Source: Falsochrobactrum shanghaiense (GTDB taxonomy: Bacteria > Pseudomonadota > Alphaproteobacteria > Rhizobiales > Rhizobiaceae). From it: a stretch of 64,000 nt of DNA. Every line of letters starts with the position of its first letter. Within the stretch, counting starts at the first letter, position 1. The notes under the pieces were generated by a model. The model ran no database searches. It was not told the origin of the DNA and worked only from the letters and a program-made list of their open reading frames with translations. Shown here piece by piece: positions 1,782 through 58,700 of this stretch. The DNA is taken from assembly GCF_003149535.1 (NCBI RefSeq), contig NZ_QGDB01000006.1:62001-126000 (forward strand), in the 5' to 3' direction. Position numbers and translations under genes: made by a program.

Positions 1782-3161
1782 ATGGCCGTACAAACAGGTT
1801 CACGCCCGGATTCCCTTTTTGGCCGGGCCATTCGCGAAGGCATCATCGCCGGCCTGCTGGCACTGGGGCTGTTCATTCTCATCGTCGGCTTCAAGACCGA
1901 TCAGAACATCAACAACGCACTGGTGCTGGACCAGCGCTGGGGCGCACTTGCGGTTCTCGTTGCGCTGTCGGCGGTCGGGCGGTTTGTCTTTATCGCTTTC
2001 GTCAACCCTTGGCTCGATGCGCGCAAGCTGGAAAAAAGCAGCCGCGCGGCGGTGGCGCCGGAAGACCGCTCCTTTTTTGTCCGGCATTTTTCACAAATCG
2101 GAGTGTTGTTCCTTTTCGCCTATCCGATCTTCATCGTCACCACGCTCGGCTGGCAGGGATCGCTCAAATGGGTGGATAATTTCGGCGTCCAGATCCTCAT
2201 CTATGTGATGCTTGCATGGGGCCTCAATATCGTGGTCGGCCTCGCTGGCCTTCTTGATCTTGGCTATGTGGCATTTTATGCGGTGGGCGCTTATTCCTAC
2301 GCTATCCTGTCGAGCTATTTCGGCCTTTCCTTCTGGGTTCTGTTGCCGATTGCAGGGCTTCTGGCGGCGACATGGGGCGTCATTCTCGGTTTCCCCGTCC
2401 TGCGCCTGCGCGGTGACTATCTGGCCATCGTGACGCTGGCATTCGGTGAAATCATCCGCCTTGTGCTGATCAACTGGACCGACCTGACAAGAGGCACGTT
2501 CGGTATTTCGGGCATCGCAAAGGCGACGTTCTTCGGCCTGCCGTTCAATGCCAGCAAAGACGGCTTTGCCGCCTATTTCGGCCTGTCGTTTTCGGCGGCG
2601 CATTACAAATTCTTCCTCTATTATATCATTCTGCTGCTTGCTCTGCTGACGGCATGGGTCACCATCCGCATGCGCCGCATGCCGGTGGGGCGCGCATGGG
2701 AAGCCTTGCGTGAAGATGAGATCGCCTGCCGCTCGCTCGGCATCAATACGACGACAACCAAGCTGACCGCCTTTGCGACGGGCGCGATGTTCGGCGGCTT
2801 TGCCGGGTCGTTCTTTGCGGCGCGCCAGGGGTTCGTCAGCCCTGAATCCTTTATCTTCCTTGAATCCGCGGTCATTCTGGCCATCGTGGTTCTCGGAGGC
2901 ATGGGGTCGCTCGTCGGTATCGCGATCGCTGCGGTTCTCATGATCGGCGGTACGGAAATCCTGCGTGAGATGAGCTTCCTGAAAGTTGTTTTCGGAGCCA
3001 ACTTCACGCCTGAACTCTATCGCATGCTGATTTTCGGTCTGGCCATGGTGATCGTCATGGTCTGGAAGCCGCGCGGCTTCGTCTCAAACCGGGAACCGAG
3101 TGCATTTCTCCACGAGAAAAAATTGGTGTCAGGTGCCTTTACCAAAGAGGGGCACGGCTGA
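1782..3161 (+). CDS. livM: Branched-chain amino acid ABC transporter permease LivM
   Basis: A 459-residue polytopic membrane protein, the second permease subunit of the liv importer. It has an N-terminal region of about 130 residues with two predicted membrane segments and a polar linker before the conserved core. The core contains [27 protein letters not shown] and the ATPase-contacting loop [20 protein letters not shown]. Many LivM proteins are shorter (about 320-420 residues), so the N-terminal extension is a rhizobial-type feature. The stop overlaps the livG start by one base (TGATG), which points to translational coupling. Confidence 0.93.
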
Positions 3162-25457: not shown

Positions 25458-26393
25458 ATGAAGCCGTCGTCTACGAGCAGTTCCTCCACCGTTTCGCCAG
25501 CCCGCCTAGCCTCGGTTTCCCCTAAATTTCCGGCCCCCGCCGCATCCTCCCAGTCCATGATCCGCAATGCGATGTCCGCGCCTTATCTGGAGCGTGAAGA
25601 AGAGCACGCCCTTGCCATCCGCTGGAAGGAATATGAAGATCAGGAAGCGCTTCATCGCATCACCGCGTCGCATATGCGGCTGGTTATTTCGATGGCCGGG
25701 CGTTTTCGCAAATTCAAGCTGCCGATGAGCGATCTTATCCAGGAAGGCTATGTCGGGCTTCTGGAGGCGGCGGCACGGTTTGATCCGGAGCGCGGCGTGC
25801 GCTTTTCTACTTATGCCTCCTGGTGGATTCGTGCATCCATGCAGGATTACATATTGCGCAACTGGTCCATTGTGCGCGGCGGCACGAGTTCAGTACAGAA
25901 GTCGCTGTTTTTCAATCTGCGCCGATTGCGCTCCAAGCTGGCGCAGGAAGACGAAACGATGAGCAAGGCGCAGATCTATCGGGAAATATCCGAGCAATTG
26001 GGCGTTTCGCAGAGCGATGTCGAATTCATGGACAGCAGGCTTTCCGGTCCCGACAGTTCGCTGTCCGCTTCGATGAACAACGATGAATCGGGTGTTTCGC
26101 GCCGGATGGATTTTCTTGTCGATGACCGTCCCTTGCAGGACGAGGTCGTGGAAAGCGTGATCGACATGGAGCGGCGCGTAAGCTGGCTTCACGTTGCCCT
26201 TGATTCCCTCAATGAGCGTGAACTGCACATCATTCGCGAGCGCCGCCTCGATGATGATGGCGTGACATTGGAGGCTTTAGGGCAGAAGCTCGGTATTTCA
26301 AAGGAGCGTGTCAGGCAGATCGAAAGCCGGGCCATGGAGAAGCTCAAGCTCGCCTTGCTCGATCAGCATGAACAGGCTGCCTATCAGGCCTAA
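25458..26393 (+). CDS. rpoH2: RNA polymerase sigma factor RpoH2 (sigma-32 family)
   Basis: Up to 311 residues. Region 2 is LIQEGYVGLLEAAARFDPERGVRFSTYASWWIRASMQ (read in parts), the RpoH box is QKSLFFNLRRLRSK, and region 4 is VTLEALGQKLGISKERVRQIE. It directs RNA polymerase to heat- and stress-response promoters. The ATG at 25458 follows CAGGAGAG; the first ~30 residues are Ser/Pro-rich and unlike the family, so a later ATG (for example the one starting MSAPYLEREEE) could be the real start. The stop TAA is also the first three bases of a palindromic repeat. In Brucella RpoH2 is linked to stress and virulence gene control. Confidence 0.93.
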   Translation: MKPSSTSSSSTVSPARLASVSPKFPAPAASSQSMIRNAMSAPYLEREEEHALAIRWKEYEDQEALHRITASHMRLVISMAGRFRKFKLPMSDLIQEGYVGLLEAAARFDPERGVRFSTYASWWIRASMQDYILRNWSIVRGGTSSVQKSLFFNLRRLRSKLAQEDETMSKAQIYREISEQLGVSQSDVEFMDSRLSGPDSSLSASMNNDESGVSRRMDFLVDDRPLQDEVVESVIDMERRVSWLHVALDSLNERELHIIRERRLDDDGVTLEALGQKLGISKERVRQIESRAMEKLKLALLDQHEQAAYQA

Positions 26394-26443
26394 AGCATGT
26401 CGCCCGAAAGTGGGAACCGGTTTCGGGATAACGACATGCTTTA
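26391..26443. repeat. 53-bp palindrome bounded by two stop codons
   Basis: TAAAGCATGTCG at the left pairs perfectly with CGACATGCTTTA at the right; inside, CCGAAA pairs with TTTCGG. The left TAA is the stop of rpoH2 (+ strand) and the right TTA is the stop of the MOSC gene (- strand). Related sequences are at 37754 and 43715. It probably serves as a bidirectional transcript end. Confidence 0.9.
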
Positions 26444-27157
26444 CAGCCGTTCCTGTTTGTCGCCTTGAAGGCGGGACGACCAGTCTTCGACTTTGCGGTT
26501 TTCGAGGCGGCGCACGGCATATCGTTTCCAGCCATCCGCGAGATGCGGAAGCCGGGCCATCAGGGCAAGCTCGTCATAATTGAGCATATCGACATAAAGC
26601 AGATGCCAGAGGCGATGCAGCGTCCATTCGGGCGATAGCCGCTCGATGAGGACCATCGTGTCGCCTGCCTCGACTTCGCCTTCCTCGACAACGCGGTAAT
26701 ACCAGCCGGTGCGCCCGGTCTTCTGGACCCGGATCGCCATGTCGGGCAGATCGAAACGGGCATTGAGTTTCCAGCAGGGCTGGCGACCTTGGGAAACTTC
26801 GATAATGGCGCCGCCCAGCCGGAAGCGGTCGCCTATCGCTACATTATGCTCGGTCAATCCGCTGGTGGAGAGATTTTCGCCAAAAGCGCCTGCTGCATCA
26901 AGGCGCGGATTATCGCCAATATCCGCGCGCCAGTCGGCATAATGCTCACGCGGGTAGTGATGCAACGCTTTTTCCGGTCCGCCATGGACCCTGCGATCGC
27001 CCTGCGCATCGCCGTCAAGTCCTTCGCGCAACACCTTGAGGCGGCCGCTTACCGGCTTTTTGTCGATGCCGCTTGGCGCCTGTCGCGCTCCGAGCGGGGC
27101 AATCCCGCCGATGAGCAAGGCTTCGATGCAGACCGCCATTTCAGCCCCCACGCTCAT
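26441..27157 (-). CDS. MOSC-domain protein (YiiM-like)
   Basis: A 238-residue protein. The MOSC core contains GLDGDAQGDRRVHGGPEKALHHYP, GAFGENLSTSGL, and the presumed cofactor-binding cysteine in SQGRQPCWKLNARF; a C-terminal helical domain follows (LHRLWHLLYVDMLNYDELALMARL in parts). YiiM proteins handle molybdenum-cofactor-type sulfur or reduce N-hydroxylated compounds. Its ATG overlaps the stop of the M48 gene (TAATG), so the two form an operon. Its own stop lies inside the 53-bp palindrome. Confidence 0.88.
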   Translation of the reverse strand: MSVGAEMAVCIEALLIGGIAPLGARQAPSGIDKKPVSGRLKVLREGLDGDAQGDRRVHGGPEKALHHYPREHYADWRADIGDNPRLDAAGAFGENLSTSGLTEHNVAIGDRFRLGGAIIEVSQGRQPCWKLNARFDLPDMAIRVQKTGRTGWYYRVVEEGEVEAGDTMVLIERLSPEWTLHRLWHLLYVDMLNYDELALMARLPHLADGWKRYAVRRLENRKVEDWSSRLQGDKQERL

Positions 27158-32179: not shown

Positions 32180-32243
32180 AGGGGCACTTTCCTTTTCAAG
32201 TTCGAGAGGATCGAGCGCCGCTATCATTGTATCGGGCAGCATC

Positions 32244-32335
32244 TAATCCCTCCGCCGGTGCAAACCGGATCAGGTTCAGCGGGTTGGCCGGAGTGCGGCC
32301 TCTCAGCCATTGCGATTGCGAATGGCACCCCGTTA
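32244..32335 (-). ncRNA. TPP riboswitch (THI element) controlling thiBPQ
   Basis: On the minus strand the conserved core reads in order: GGGGTGCC, GGCTGAGAGG, ACCCGCTGAACCTGATC, and CGGAGGGATTA. These are the hallmark blocks of the THI-box. It lies just upstream of thiB and reads toward it. The downstream 64-base stretch to the thiB start would be the expression platform; a U-rich terminator is not obvious, so translational control is more likely. Confidence 0.95.
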
Positions 32336-32438
32336 GAGCAAATATGACAATAGTGCTTTCGTACCCGAAGGGCAAGGGAGGGCGCGCGTGGGCAAAACCG
32401 GGCTTCCGGCTGCGATTTGGTCGTGTTATGAGCAGCTT

Positions 32439-37753: not shown

Positions 37754-37920
37754 TAAAGCATGACGCCCGAAAGTGGGAACCGGTTTCGGGATGACGACAT
37801 GCATTAAAACAACAACTTAAAGCGCATCCCGAAAAGTGTGAAACGGTTTTCGGAAAAGATGCGCGTTAAAACAACAACTGAAAGCGCAAGGAGCGAATCT
37901 GAAAGATCGCGACACGCTTT
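37754..37920 (+). repeat. Composite ~165-bp palindromic repeat, left copy
   Basis: Starts TAAAGCATGACGCCCGAAAG and contains, in order, the CCCGAAA/TTTCGGG hairpin, AAAACAACAACTTAAAGCGC, the GCATCCCGAAAAG/TTTTCGGAAAAGATGCGCG hairpin, and GAAAGATCGCGACACGCTTT at the end. The whole unit is present in reverse orientation at 43715-43877 with few differences. It lies between the FGase and DUF1036 genes. Confidence 0.88.
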
Positions 37921-38113
37921 ATGCGGCCAAAGAACGTGCAGAGGCCAGATCTGTCATGAGAAAACCCCGATTGCAACGATCATTCTTGTATCTACGTCCC
38001 GCTTCTCGGTGGGATTGCGTTGACATCAAAGGCGAAACTGCCGAAAAGAGAGCGACCGAAAGAGGATTTCCCTGGTGAGACACAAGCGATTGCGGGCTGA
38101 AGGAGTTCGGCGA

Positions 38114-43528: not shown

Positions 43529-43714
43529 AAACAAAGCCTGACATCAGACTTTTGCGGGTCCGCAAGCAGGCAGCAATGCTTCAACCTTCTGGACCTTTGC
43601 TCTTGTAAGCGAAGATATTTCATTGGCGGCTGGGACACGGCCGCCAAATAATTGATTTCAGCACTATTCTGGAATTCCCCTGTTCAAAGGGAACCGTCAC
43701 ACTCATCCGCACTT

Positions 43715-43877
43715 AAAGCGTGTCGCGATCTTTCAGATCCGCTCCTTACGCTTTTGTTGTTTTAACGCGCATCTTTTCCGAAAACCGGTTCCCACTTTTC
43801 GGGATGCGCTTTAAGTTGTTGTTTTAACGCATGTCGTTATCCCGAAACCGGTTCCCACTTTCGGGCGACATGCTTTA
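43715..43877 (-). repeat. Composite ~165-bp palindromic repeat, right copy (inverted)
   Basis: Reverse complement of the unit at 37754-37920 with only scattered changes. Read on the minus strand it starts TAAAGCATGTCGCCCGAAAG, and that TAA is the stop codon of the MFS gene. The remaining bases between the DUF465 gene and the repeat (43529-43714) show no gene or terminator. Confidence 0.88.
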
Positions 43878-45113
43878 GTTATCCGGCTCCGCCCTTGGGT
43901 CCAGCTTCATGACTTCGGGCGTTGCGCTGCGGCTTGCCGGCATGCTTTTGAAATTGTCTTTTTCCTCTTTCGAGGGGGCCGCGCGCTGGCGATAGCGGAA
44001 CAAGGCATAGCCGGCGATCGATATATGGGCGAGGGCCGTTATCGCAAAAAGTGCGGATGGCCAGAAAATACCCATGAAGGCCGCGCCGAGCAGGGGGCCG
44101 AGCATGGTTCCAAAACCGTATAGTAGCAGCAGGCCGCTCGATACTTTCACGAAGCTTTCCGAAGAGGCGTGGTCATTTGCATGGGCGACGGCGACCGGAT
44201 AAAGCGCGTAGGCCAGTGCGCCATAGCAGCCGGTCATCATGATGATGACCGTTCCATCGGAAGGCCCGATGATGAAGGCGAGAAGCCCGACAAGGGCTGC
44301 GAGCGAGGCCACGCCTGCAAGCACGAAACGGCGATCGACCAGATCGGAAATGCGCCCGACGGGGATTTGCATGAGCGCCCCTGCGGCAATGGTGACGCTG
44401 ACCATCAGGGCGATTTCGACGGTTGAGATGCCCGATTGCGCGCCGAAGACTGCGCCAAGCGTTCCCCATGCGCCATTGGCTATGCCGATCAATATGCAGC
44501 CGACGAAGGCTGCGGGCGAATTGCGATAGAGCGCTTTGAGATCAAGCTGCACTTCCGTAAGCGGCCTGGGGCTGACTGCGGTGGAAATAGCGGTGGGAAT
44601 GAGGGCAAGACAGAAGAAAATGCCGGTGATCATGAACAGATGGTCTGTATGGATGTCTCCGGTGGCAACGAGCATCTGCCCGCTCATCGTCGCTCCGTAA
44701 TTGACCATCATATAGAGGCCGAAAATCCTGCCGCGCGATTCGTTGGTGGCGCGCTCATTGAGCCAGCTTTCGATGACCATGAATGCGCCCGCCATGGAAA
44801 AGCCGGTGAAGGCACGCAGGACGATCCAGGCCGTCGCATCGATATAGATGCCCGACAGCAATGCGATGATGGCGGCTGAGGCGGCAAAGCAGCCAAAGGC
44901 GCGCACATGGCCGACCCGGCGCACGAGGCGGGGTGCGAAAACGCATCCGGCGACGAAACCGCCTGCCCAGGTCGTGCCGAGCAGGCCCAGCGACGCCACG
45001 GAAAAACCTTCGATGCCGCCGCGTAACGGCAGCAGAAGCCCATGCAGGCCCGAAGCGATCAGAAGAAAAGCAGTTCCGCAAAGGAGGGCGAGAACCTGAA
45101 TGTAAATGCGCAA
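43875..45113 (-). CDS. MFS transporter (YcaD-like)
   Basis: A 412-residue carrier with about 12 membrane helices. The stretch GFSMAGAFMVIESWLNERATN in the first half is typical of the YcaD group. The C-terminal ~40 residues are a polar tail. The start is TTG at 45113: GGGAAG lies six bases before and no closer ATG is in frame. Substrate unknown. The stop codon is provided by the edge of the composite repeat. Confidence 0.87.
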   Translation of the reverse strand: MRIYIQVLALLCGTAFLLIASGLHGLLLPLRGGIEGFSVASLGLLGTTWAGGFVAGCVFAPRLVRRVGHVRAFGCFAASAAIIALLSGIYIDATAWIVLRAFTGFSMAGAFMVIESWLNERATNESRGRIFGLYMMVNYGATMSGQMLVATGDIHTDHLFMITGIFFCLALIPTAISTAVSPRPLTEVQLDLKALYRNSPAAFVGCILIGIANGAWGTLGAVFGAQSGISTVEIALMVSVTIAAGALMQIPVGRISDLVDRRFVLAGVASLAALVGLLAFIIGPSDGTVIIMMTGCYGALAYALYPVAVAHANDHASSESFVKVSSGLLLLYGFGTMLGPLLGAAFMGIFWPSALFAITALAHISIAGYALFRYRQRAAPSKEEKDNFKSMPASRSATPEVMKLDPRAEPDN

Positions 45114-47440: not shown

Positions 47441-47454
47441 GGGAGGATGGGTTG

Positions 47455-47555
47455 GCGTGTCGCGATCTTTCAGATTCGTTTCTTACGCTTCAAGTTTTGC
47501 TTTATCGCATTATCCAAACGTAAAACCGTTTCACACTTTTGCTGGAAATGCTCTA
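47455..47555. repeat. Intergenic repeat between trcR and the WYL gene
   Basis: Contains GTGTCGCGATCTTTCAGATT (same block as the left end of the 43715 repeat) and then AAAACCGTTTCACACTTTTG...GAAATGCTCTA (same as 5265-5303). It therefore links the two repeat types. Its right edge CTA (47553-47555) is the stop of the WYL gene on the minus strand. Confidence 0.8.
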
Positions 47556-48254
47556 ATCTTTGAACGCGTTATATTCGCTCGATTCCATCTGCCGGTAGAA
47601 GTCCTTGAGCGTTTTGCCGCGCTCGGAGTGAAAATTGCGACCGGCATTATTGGCTTCAAGGATGCGGTCGGTGCGGAACGTACGAAATGCATCGCGCAAT
47701 TCGCACCAGCCGATCACCGTCCATACCTTGCCCCAGAACCACAAGCCCAAAGGGCGAATATCGCGCTCGCTTTCTTTTGCCTCCAGATCGCGATAGCGGA
47801 TATTGAGGACATTGCTCCGGTCGACGGCGCGTTCAACGGTATCGATAATGTGGCGTTCACCCTCGCTGATGCTGGTGGAGGGGGAGTGAATCTGCGTTCC
47901 GGTGATCCGCATACGCTCCTGTCTGGGCAAGACCGCTTCAATCTTGACCAGAGCTTCTTCCGCGCCCCGCGCCATGGAAGCACCGCCCCAGGCGCGGACC
48001 AGACGCGCCCCGGCAACCAGTGCGACGATCTCATCGCGGGTGAACATCAGCGGCGGCAGCTCGAAACCCTGACGCAATAAATAGCCGACGCCCGCTTCAC
48101 CGTCGATGGGTACTCCCGTCGATTGCAGATCGGCTATATCGCGGTAAATCGTGCGTTCGGAGACTTCCAGCCGTTCGGCAAGCTGGTGCGCGGTGACGAG
48201 CCTGCCACCGCGCAGGTGCTGAACTATCTGAAACAGGCGATCGGCGCGACGCAT
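47553..48254 (-). CDS. WYL-domain transcriptional regulator (DeoR-like HTH)
   Basis: A 233-residue regulator. The N-terminal winged HTH is RLVTAHQLAERLEVSERTIYRDIADLQSTG (read in parts); the C-terminal WYL domain (about 130-225) contains LNIRYRD, LWFWGKVWTVIGWCEL and FRTFRTDRI. WYL regulators sense small ligands, often nucleic acids or nucleotides. The ATG at 48254 has AGGA before it and lies seven bases after the stop of a 57-residue gene, so the two are an operon. Confidence 0.9.
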   Translation of the reverse strand: MRRADRLFQIVQHLRGGRLVTAHQLAERLEVSERTIYRDIADLQSTGVPIDGEAGVGYLLRQGFELPPLMFTRDEIVALVAGARLVRAWGGASMARGAEEALVKIEAVLPRQERMRITGTQIHSPSTSISEGERHIIDTVERAVDRSNVLNIRYRDLEAKESERDIRPLGLWFWGKVWTVIGWCELRDAFRTFRTDRILEANNAGRNFHSERGKTLKDFYRQMESSEYNAFKD

Positions 48255-58466: not shown

Positions 58467-58628
58467 TTGGCGTACTGCGCTTCCCGACAGGAGTAATAGC
58501 ATCCCCGGGGCCTTATTGATCTCTAAGGGAGCTGTCCCTGTGAAGGCCCGTGGGCTTTCGCATATGGCGCCCACCTACTTTGTAGGTTCCCGGGATCAAT
58601 CTCTTCCATCGGTCGTCGTGGTCGCCAC
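58467..58628 (+). ncRNA. ssrS: 6S RNA
   Basis: A ~160-nt non-coding RNA between zapA and the 5-formyl-THF cyclo-ligase gene, its classic position. The 5' end GGCGTACTGCG can pair with CGTCGTGGTCGCC at the 3' end; CCCGGG arms (about 58502 and 58590) pair further in, leaving the large central bubble. TATATA at 58457-58462 is a suitable -10 box, giving a start near 58468. 6S RNA mimics an open promoter and sequesters sigma-70 RNA polymerase. Exact ends are estimates. Confidence 0.82.
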
Positions 58629-58700
58629 TCTCTTTCATCTGGATGTTTCCCTTGTTCCCGACATGCTTTATGAACGTCATGAAGCATGGGAGGAGTTGCG

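What the first reader, a model, noticed from the sequence alone, without database searches (positions are those of the whole stretch)
26391..26443. A 53-bp palindrome whose two ends are the stop codons of two convergent genes
Seen directly: TAAAGCATGTCG...CGACATGCTTTA begins with the rpoH2 stop (TAA, + strand) and ends with the MOSC-gene stop (TAA on the - strand). The inner CCGAAA/TTTCGG arms complete a long hairpin. Because the element carries TAA at each end in each orientation, insertion or spread into a gene end would always supply stop codons to both sides. This suggests a role as a shared stop-and-terminate module rather than neutral filler.
Basis: partly seen in the sequence, partly recalled or inferred. 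Interest (0 to 1): 0.7.

Follow-up and report, generated by a model that had tools for sequence, protein, structure and literature searches.

The report
Mobile palindrome sitting on stop codons
A short jumping DNA hairpin, one of dozens in this bacterium, sits exactly on the stop signals of two facing genes; because it targets the letters TA and its next letter is A, the genes keep their stop signals, so it looks like a tolerated passenger more than a purpose-built terminator.

Summary
The 53-bp palindrome is real; its ends are the TAA stops of a sigma-32 gene and a MOSC gene. It is the shortest form of a repeat with 63 copies located in this genome: 33 of 105-107 bp, 10 of 163-168 bp, 7 of 53-55 bp, others cut. 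The short form fits a 53-bp deletion between two 8-mers of the 106-bp form. Size and layout match Bru-RS/CIR repeats (sequences not compared). Best reading: a MITE of an IS630-family transposon, since intact IS630 elements in relatives end in TAAAGC[A/G]TGTCGC as this repeat does. It lies in YTAR contexts; landing on a TAA/TAG stop rebuilds TAA. 22 gene stops sit exactly on copy ends and none of the called genes reads deeper into a copy. For 13 of 17 ends tested some relative stops at the same codon, so most stops predate the repeat. Overlap exceeds random TA sites 3.7-fold, but YTAR sites near gene ends only 1.5-2 fold (own genome P=0.08; pooled P=0.01). None of the 22 stop-overlapping copies holds an intrinsic terminator. 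A 'stop-and-terminate module' is not shown; a tolerated mobile element explains most of it.

The parts
26391..26443 (.). 53-bp element: short (arm A only) form of the repeat, imperfect palindrome
26391..26403 (+). left terminus TAAAGCATGTCGC, same letters as one end of IS630-family elements in relatives
26432..26443 (-). right terminus TAAAGCATGTCG (12 bp)
26391..26393 (+). TAA stop of the sigma-32 gene; its TA is the inferred target
   Evidence: same codon in 22 of 22 same-genus loci L050-L071
26441..26443 (-). TAA stop of the MOSC gene; the relatives shown end 3-5 residues earlier
25557..26393 (+). RNA polymerase sigma-32 factor (rpoH2 by recall)
26441..27157 (-). MOSC / YiiM-like protein
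37754..37921 (+). 168-bp (A-B-C) copy of the same repeat, between divergent genes
43714..43877 (-). 164-bp (A-B-C) copy; its A end holds the TAA stop (43875-43877) of an MFS gene 43875-45113 (-)
47449..47555 (-). related copy (limits by eye) with another head, TAGAGCATTTCC, and the same C tail; its TAG is the stop of the gene called at 47553-48254 (-)
   Evidence: IS630 relatives with TAGAGC ends

Best explanation
The palindrome is a short derivative of a MITE that was moved by an IS630-family transposase and resembles the Bru-RS/CIR repeats of alphaproteobacteria. The full forms (A-C ~106 bp, A-B-C ~168 bp) end in TAAAGC[A/G]TGTCGC and lie at a TA in a YTAR context, with (inferred) duplication of the TA. 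Because the base after TA is A at both ends, insertion into a TAA or TAG stop codon rebuilds TAA for that gene, and also for a gene on the other strand if two convergent stops share the TA. Such insertions and others in 3' flanks are tolerated; insertions inside genes and between divergent genes are absent or rarer, presumably purged. The 53-bp form fits a 53-bp deletion between CGACATGC (end of arm A) and CGACACGC (end of arm C). Shown by calls: copies, forms, termini, flanking bases, stop overlap, stop position in relatives, shared termini with IS630. Inferred: TA duplication at this site, movement in trans, the deletion, purging, neutrality.
For: 63 copies located in the window plus 65 stretches of the same genome; 37 exact and 23 one-mismatch seeds genome-wide, 95 in all at up to 2 mismatches against 4 for the reversed pattern. 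Flanking bases Y and R at 42 of 51 full copies. Five of 360 plasmid records with a match were fetched: 4 of 5 show TAAAGC[A/G]TGTCGC at both ends of a ~1.05-kb element, 1 of 5 at one end only. A search for TA-bounded inverted ends that did not use the repeat finds the same ends in 7 of 29 transposase loci of the genus; 5 of 29 have TAGAGC ends and 17 of 29 give nothing. The window genome keeps an IS630-type fragment with one end TAAAGCGTGTGGC. 22 of 22 gene stops on copy ends are in the TAA frame, and 0 of 63 copies lie inside a called gene. Same residue count to the stop in at least one relative for 13 of 17 ends. In 27 of 33 copies of 105-107 bp the two 8-mers lie 53 bp apart; the seven short copies show either version at the junction.
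Against: No transposition was tested. The window genome has one PF13358 match, a fragment, and no second end of it was found. Leaving out the element and one TA here gives TAC, no stop, for sigma-32; a later base change must be assumed (silent in the last MOSC codon). 9 of 51 full copies have other flanking bases, and a few ends are not TA. A 1.5-2 fold excess at stops remains after target control. Arm A is at a stop more often than arm C (33 of 82 against 9 of 56, P=0.003; full copies only 18 of 79 against 9 of 79, P=0.09), which neutrality does not predict, though cut copies were found only through arm A. In other genomes 3 genes run past the copy's end.
Confidence: 0.83

Rival explanations
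1. Shared stop-and-terminate module: the element is kept because it ends translation and transcription of both neighbours.
For: Exact stop overlap on 22 gene ends, strong hairpin, convergent bias 31 of 62, hairpin pairs kept through two-sided changes at two pairs, pooled 1.9-fold excess with P=0.01.
Against: No T-tract terminator at 26300-26550 and 0 of 22 inside stop-overlapping copies; 5 of 22 have an ordinary terminator within 150 nt beyond the copy. Of 22 relatives that the scan took as element-free, 12 have a terminator after the sigma-32 stop and 10 none (one of the 22, L059, shows a degenerate related copy by eye). Most tested stops predate the element. Two of three frames miss the end TAA.
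Confidence: 0.07
2. REP-like RNA element: the hairpin is transcribed at mRNA 3' ends and protects or processes the message, or acts with Rho; the stop overlap is a by-product.
For: Location downstream of genes; pairs kept between subfamilies; arm A preferred at stops. Such roles or transcription are discussed for other repeats in PMC3733652 and PMC2873474 (passages).
Against: Little site conservation: most relatives examined lack an element at the same junctions. No expression data were available. Paired ends are also what a transposase substrate needs.
Confidence: 0.2
3. Chance palindrome at a gene junction.
For: None found.
Against: 63 copies; fold z -7.7; 18 seed matches in the window at up to 2 mismatches, 0 of 100 shuffles reach that.
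Confidence: 0

Closest known systems
Bru-RS1/Bru-RS2 (Halling and Bricker 1994, not held; seen through passages of PMC2267715, PMC3163539, PMC2266754, PMC10800456)
   Same: Palindromic repeat of 103-106 bp in tens of intergenic copies in Brucella; main form here 105-107 bp. YTAR, reported there as the target of IS711 (which can insert in Bru-RS1), is the context of this repeat too.
   Different: Sequence identity not tested (published letters not in the held text). The window copy is a 53-bp form. Termini here match IS630 elements; no matching pair of ends was found near the PF13340 transposases.
CIR, CcrM-associated intergenic repeats (Chen and Shapiro 2003, not held; seen through passages of PMC2229807)
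   Same: ~110 bp, two arms joined by a linker, GANTC in an arm, TA at the termini, Caulobacter and Brucella; here 27 of 33 copies of 105-107 bp hold GANTC.
   Different: PMC2229807 lists no terminal inverted repeat and an unknown duplication for CIR; here the termini pair. The short forms lack GANTC (0 of 7).
RUP of pneumococcus with IS630-Spn1 (PMC2229807, passages)
   Same: ~107-bp repeat with termini like those of an IS630-family element and a TA target: the same logic.
   Different: Different host; sequences were not compared.
BOX and GTAG-REP repeats at stop codons (PMC3049150, PMC3733652, passages)
   Same: BOX encodes the stop codon in 36 of 58 overlapped genes without strong evidence of truncation; GTAG REP ends often provide a TAG stop.
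   Different: Other repeats; the passages seen give no TA/YTAR reasoning.

Membership tests
IS630-mobilised MITE | termini match those of an IS630-family element | tested here: met
   TAAAGC[A/G]TGTCGC at both ends in 4 of 5 plasmid elements fetched (left end anchored on TAAAGC) and in 7 of 29 genus loci
IS630-mobilised MITE | TA target-site duplication | tested here: inconclusive
   TA at both ends of most full copies and Y/R flanks at 42 of 51; no near-identical empty site at hand
IS630-mobilised MITE | short and many copies | tested here: met
   53-168 bp, 63 copies
IS630-mobilised MITE | moved in trans by the transposase | not testable with these tools
   needs a transposition assay
Bru-RS | 103-106 bp palindromic form in tens of copies | tested here: met
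   33 of 63 copies are 105-107 bp
Bru-RS | sequence identity to Bru-RS1/2 | not tested
   published letters not in the held text
CIR | GANTC in one arm | tested here: not met
   not met by the short forms (0 of 7, the window copy included); 27 of 33 copies of 105-107 bp and 8 of 10 long copies do have it
Intrinsic terminator | GC hairpin followed by a T tract | tested here: not met
   0 found around the element; 0 of 22 inside stop-overlapping copies
REP with GTAG or CGTC tag | GTAG or CGTC at one end | tested here: not met
   neither word occurs on either strand of the 53 bp (read by eye)

The most novel reading that the evidence does not exclude
Stop codons are a preferred landing site for these IS630-type MITEs and some copies have been kept as gene-end modules: in other species a repeat of a different subfamily has its end on the stop of the same gene (L112, L135, L149, L156, and L051 on the MOSC side), and arm A is used at stops more often than arm C. 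A shared old insertion with later replacement is not excluded.
Probability: 0.13. Interest if true: 0.6.

Novelty: new member of a known kind. Interest (0 to 1): 0.36.

Why it matters
It gives a simple rule for how a mobile repeat can enter gene ends without harm (TA target plus a terminal A rebuilds TAA on either strand), and names a candidate mobiliser, an IS630-family transposase, for a kind of repeat whose means of movement PMC2229807 (passages) leaves open. It also cautions against reading a repeat on a stop codon as a designed terminator.

Tried and rejected
PF13340 (IS5/IS427-type, by recall the IS711 group) transposases as mobiliser: five matches in the genome, one of them below the curated cut-off; single end-like words with two mismatches turned up in two of the five loci but no matching pair. 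Rfam: no family at this site. Intrinsic terminator: not met. Truncation of genes by the element: not seen for 13 of 17 ends; 4 of 17 (the MOSC end, L029, L031 right, L040) differ by 1-5 residues from each relative shown and stay open (one search prints at most 8 relatives per end). A first background of all non-coding or stop YTAR sites gave a 3.8-fold excess (15 of 51 against 62 of 634); it was replaced by sites near gene 3' ends because the repeat is rare between divergent genes. Limits: genes come from a home-made codon-usage finder, not a published caller. The copy scan keys on arm A, so copies without it (L100, L103, L104) and a hybrid (L105) are outside the counts; one of the seven short copies (L106) has lost its left end. 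In one search one more gene (L047) ends on TGA at a degenerate copy end and is not among the 22. In one search genes ending just before or one to two bases off the copy (L180, L182, L186, L195) were not counted as stops, and L196 has a gene overlapping a right-cut copy. The figures for other genomes (20 at stops, 30 elsewhere) were tallied by hand; a recount gives 29. Two pairs of copies look orthologous (L188/L189, L079/L080) and were not merged. The background for the pooled test comes from the window genome alone.

Full report
What is there. Window 26391-26443 is a 53-bp imperfect palindrome between two convergent genes. Its left TAA is the stop of a sigma-32 gene (NF005693) and its right end, read on the minus strand, is the stop of a MOSC/YiiM-like gene. 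It folds far better than shuffles (z -7.7 and -6.2). A terminator scan of 26300-26550 finds nothing and no Rfam family reaches its cut-off here. The statement that the element always gives stops is wrong: of the four remaining frames one stops inside and three stay open.

It is one of many. The seed AAAGCATGTCGCCCG has 37 exact, 23 one-mismatch and 35 two-mismatch matches in the 3.84-Mb genome, against 4 for the reversed pattern. In the window plus 65 stretches of the same genome I located 63 copies that hold the palindrome: 33 of 105-107 bp, 10 of 163-168 bp, 7 of 53-55 bp (one of them, L106, with a lost left end), 1 of 85 bp, and 12 whose right end is lost. The long forms are mosaics: arm A (the palindrome seen here), a linker GTTAAAACAACAACTTAAAGCG, an optional arm B, and arm C, which holds GAATC and ends CGACACGCTTTA. 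GANTC, the CcrM site, is in 27 of 33 copies of 105-107 bp, 8 of 10 long copies and 0 of 7 short ones. In 27 of 33 copies of 105-107 bp the 8-mer at the end of arm A lies exactly 53 bp before its near-copy at the end of arm C, so one deletion between them would give a 53-bp closed palindrome. The seven short copies have either version at that junction, as several separate deletions would give. Whether the window copy was shortened before or after insertion is not known.

What moves it. The window genome has one PF13358 match, an IS630-type fragment (L216), one end of which reads TAAAGCGTGTGGC beside an IS110-like gene (the IS110 label is recalled); a second end was not found. A search of plasmid records with this fragment finds 360 records, none covering 80% of the query. 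Of five fetched (Ochrobactrum and Rhizobium), four carry an IS630 family annotation; four of the five show TAAAGC[A/G]TGTCGC at both ends of a 1052-1054-bp element and the fifth at one end (the script anchored the left end on TAAAGC). A second search, for TA-bounded inverted ends around 29 transposase loci of the genus and made without the repeat's letters, finds TAAAGC[A/G]TGTCGC ends in 7 of 29, TAGAGC ends in 5 of 29 and nothing in 17 of 29. The repeat's arm A end is TAAAGCATGTCGC and its arm C end TAAAGCGTGTCGC. This is the relation described for RUP and IS630-Spn1 in PMC2229807 (passages). PF13340 transposases gave no matching pair of ends.

Why stops. The bases before and after the element fit YTAR at 42 of 51 full copies; 9 do not fit. 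Because both ends read TAAAGC, insertion at the TA of TAA or TAG leaves TAA on that strand, and likewise on the other. 15 of 63 left ends and 7 of 51 right ends are exactly the stop of a neighbouring gene, no called gene runs past the end TAA into a copy, and no copy lies inside a called gene. Random truncation would put two thirds of such genes in other frames. In 47 copies from other genomes (the first 40 same-genus copies in the order of the list, and the 7 loci from Aquamicrobium and Mesorhizobium) 18 left and 2 right ends are stops, TAA and TAG ten times each, and 3 genes run past.

Did the repeat create the stops? For 17 of the 22 gene ends I compared relatives. In 13 of 17 at least one relative has the same number of residues to the stop; in 4 of 17, the MOSC end here among them, the relatives shown differ by 1-5 residues. 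The sigma-32 stop lies at the same codon in 22 of 22 same-genus loci printed (L050-L071; TAA, TAG or TGA); the 23rd same-genus locus, L072, was not aligned there. Two of these loci, L051 and L059, have related repeats of other types in the same junction. So at this gene the stop is older than the element. Leaving the element and one TA out here gives CTAC: a TAG stop for MOSC but TAC for sigma-32, so a later base change must be assumed; it would be silent in the last MOSC codon. At L031, the other copy with stops on both ends, the same exercise gives CTAA, a stop on both strands, with no such assumption, and three relatives read TAA followed by a similar stretch (L142-L144).

Is the overlap more than expected? 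Compared with any TA near gene ends it is 3.7-fold (P=1e-5; within convergent pairs 2.6-fold, P=0.006). Compared with YTAR near gene ends it is 1.7-fold (22:39 against 65:199, P=0.08), within convergent pairs 1.5-fold (P=0.32); with CTAR or YTAG 1.4-fold (P=0.32) and 1.1-fold (P=1). With the copies of other genomes pooled it is 1.9-fold, P=0.01, and for those copies alone 2.0-fold, P=0.04 (hand tally, some copies orthologous, background from the window genome only). So target availability accounts for much of the effect; the rest may be hot spots, survivorship or selection. Survivorship fits one figure: 15 of 31 right-cut copies sit on a stop with their left end against 18 of 79 full copies (P=0.01). 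Convergent junctions are enriched (31 of 62 against 95 of 561) and divergent ones depleted (8 of 62 against 198 of 561); PMC3049150 (passages) reports the convergent bias for pneumococcal repeats and IS elements and explains it by tolerance downstream of genes.

Does it terminate? A hairpin-plus-T-tract scan finds 0 of 22 inside the stop-overlapping copies and 5 of 22 within 150 nt beyond them (shuffled 0); 39 of 103 ends in relatives taken as element-free (shuffled 2); 75 of 296 other gene ends of this genome (shuffled 6), 30 of 80 among convergent ones. At this junction 12 of 22 such relatives have a terminator after the sigma-32 stop and 10 have none; 3 of 22 on the MOSC side. L059, counted as element-free, shows a degenerate related copy by eye. 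Rho-dependent or RNA-stability effects cannot be judged here. Hairpin pairs are mostly kept: among 61 distinct arm A sequences, two-sided changes are common at two of 15 pairs (16 and 9 sequences) and seen once at three others. A transposase substrate would explain this as well as an RNA role; no relatedness control was run.

Known relatives. Size, copy number, palindromes and YTAR fit Bru-RS; two arms with a linker, GANTC and TA ends fit CIR. I saw these only through passages of PMC2267715, PMC3163539, PMC2266754, PMC10800456 and PMC2229807; the 2003 paper is not held, the 1994 paper was not looked up, and no letters were compared. Repeats that provide stop codons are known: BOX (PMC3049150) and GTAG REPs (PMC3733652), passages. 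Passages of PMC2759123, PMC5896051, PMC7589603, PMC2873474, PMC2245857, PMC10459465 and PMC1273637 were also looked at. A link of Bru-RS/CIR to IS630 did not show in the listings, which is no proof of absence from print.

Noticed in passing
window 47449-47555: A related repeat with a different head (TAGAGCATTTCC) and the same arm C tail ends a minus-strand gene with TAG; its head resembles the TAGAGC ends of a second IS630 group in relatives.
   Followed up: partly
window 58469-58670: A 6S RNA gene (RF00013) is followed about 30 bp later by CCCGACATGCTTTA, which looks like a lone end of the repeat.
   Followed up: no
L105 near 3010-3065: A hybrid short palindrome with a B-like left arm and an A-like right arm, suggesting recombination between arms.
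   Followed up: no
L051 and L059, sigma-32/MOSC junction: Two relatives carry repeats of other types in the same junction, in opposite orientations, apparently separate insertions.
   Followed up: partly
window 32230-32342: TPP riboswitch on the minus strand.
   Followed up: no
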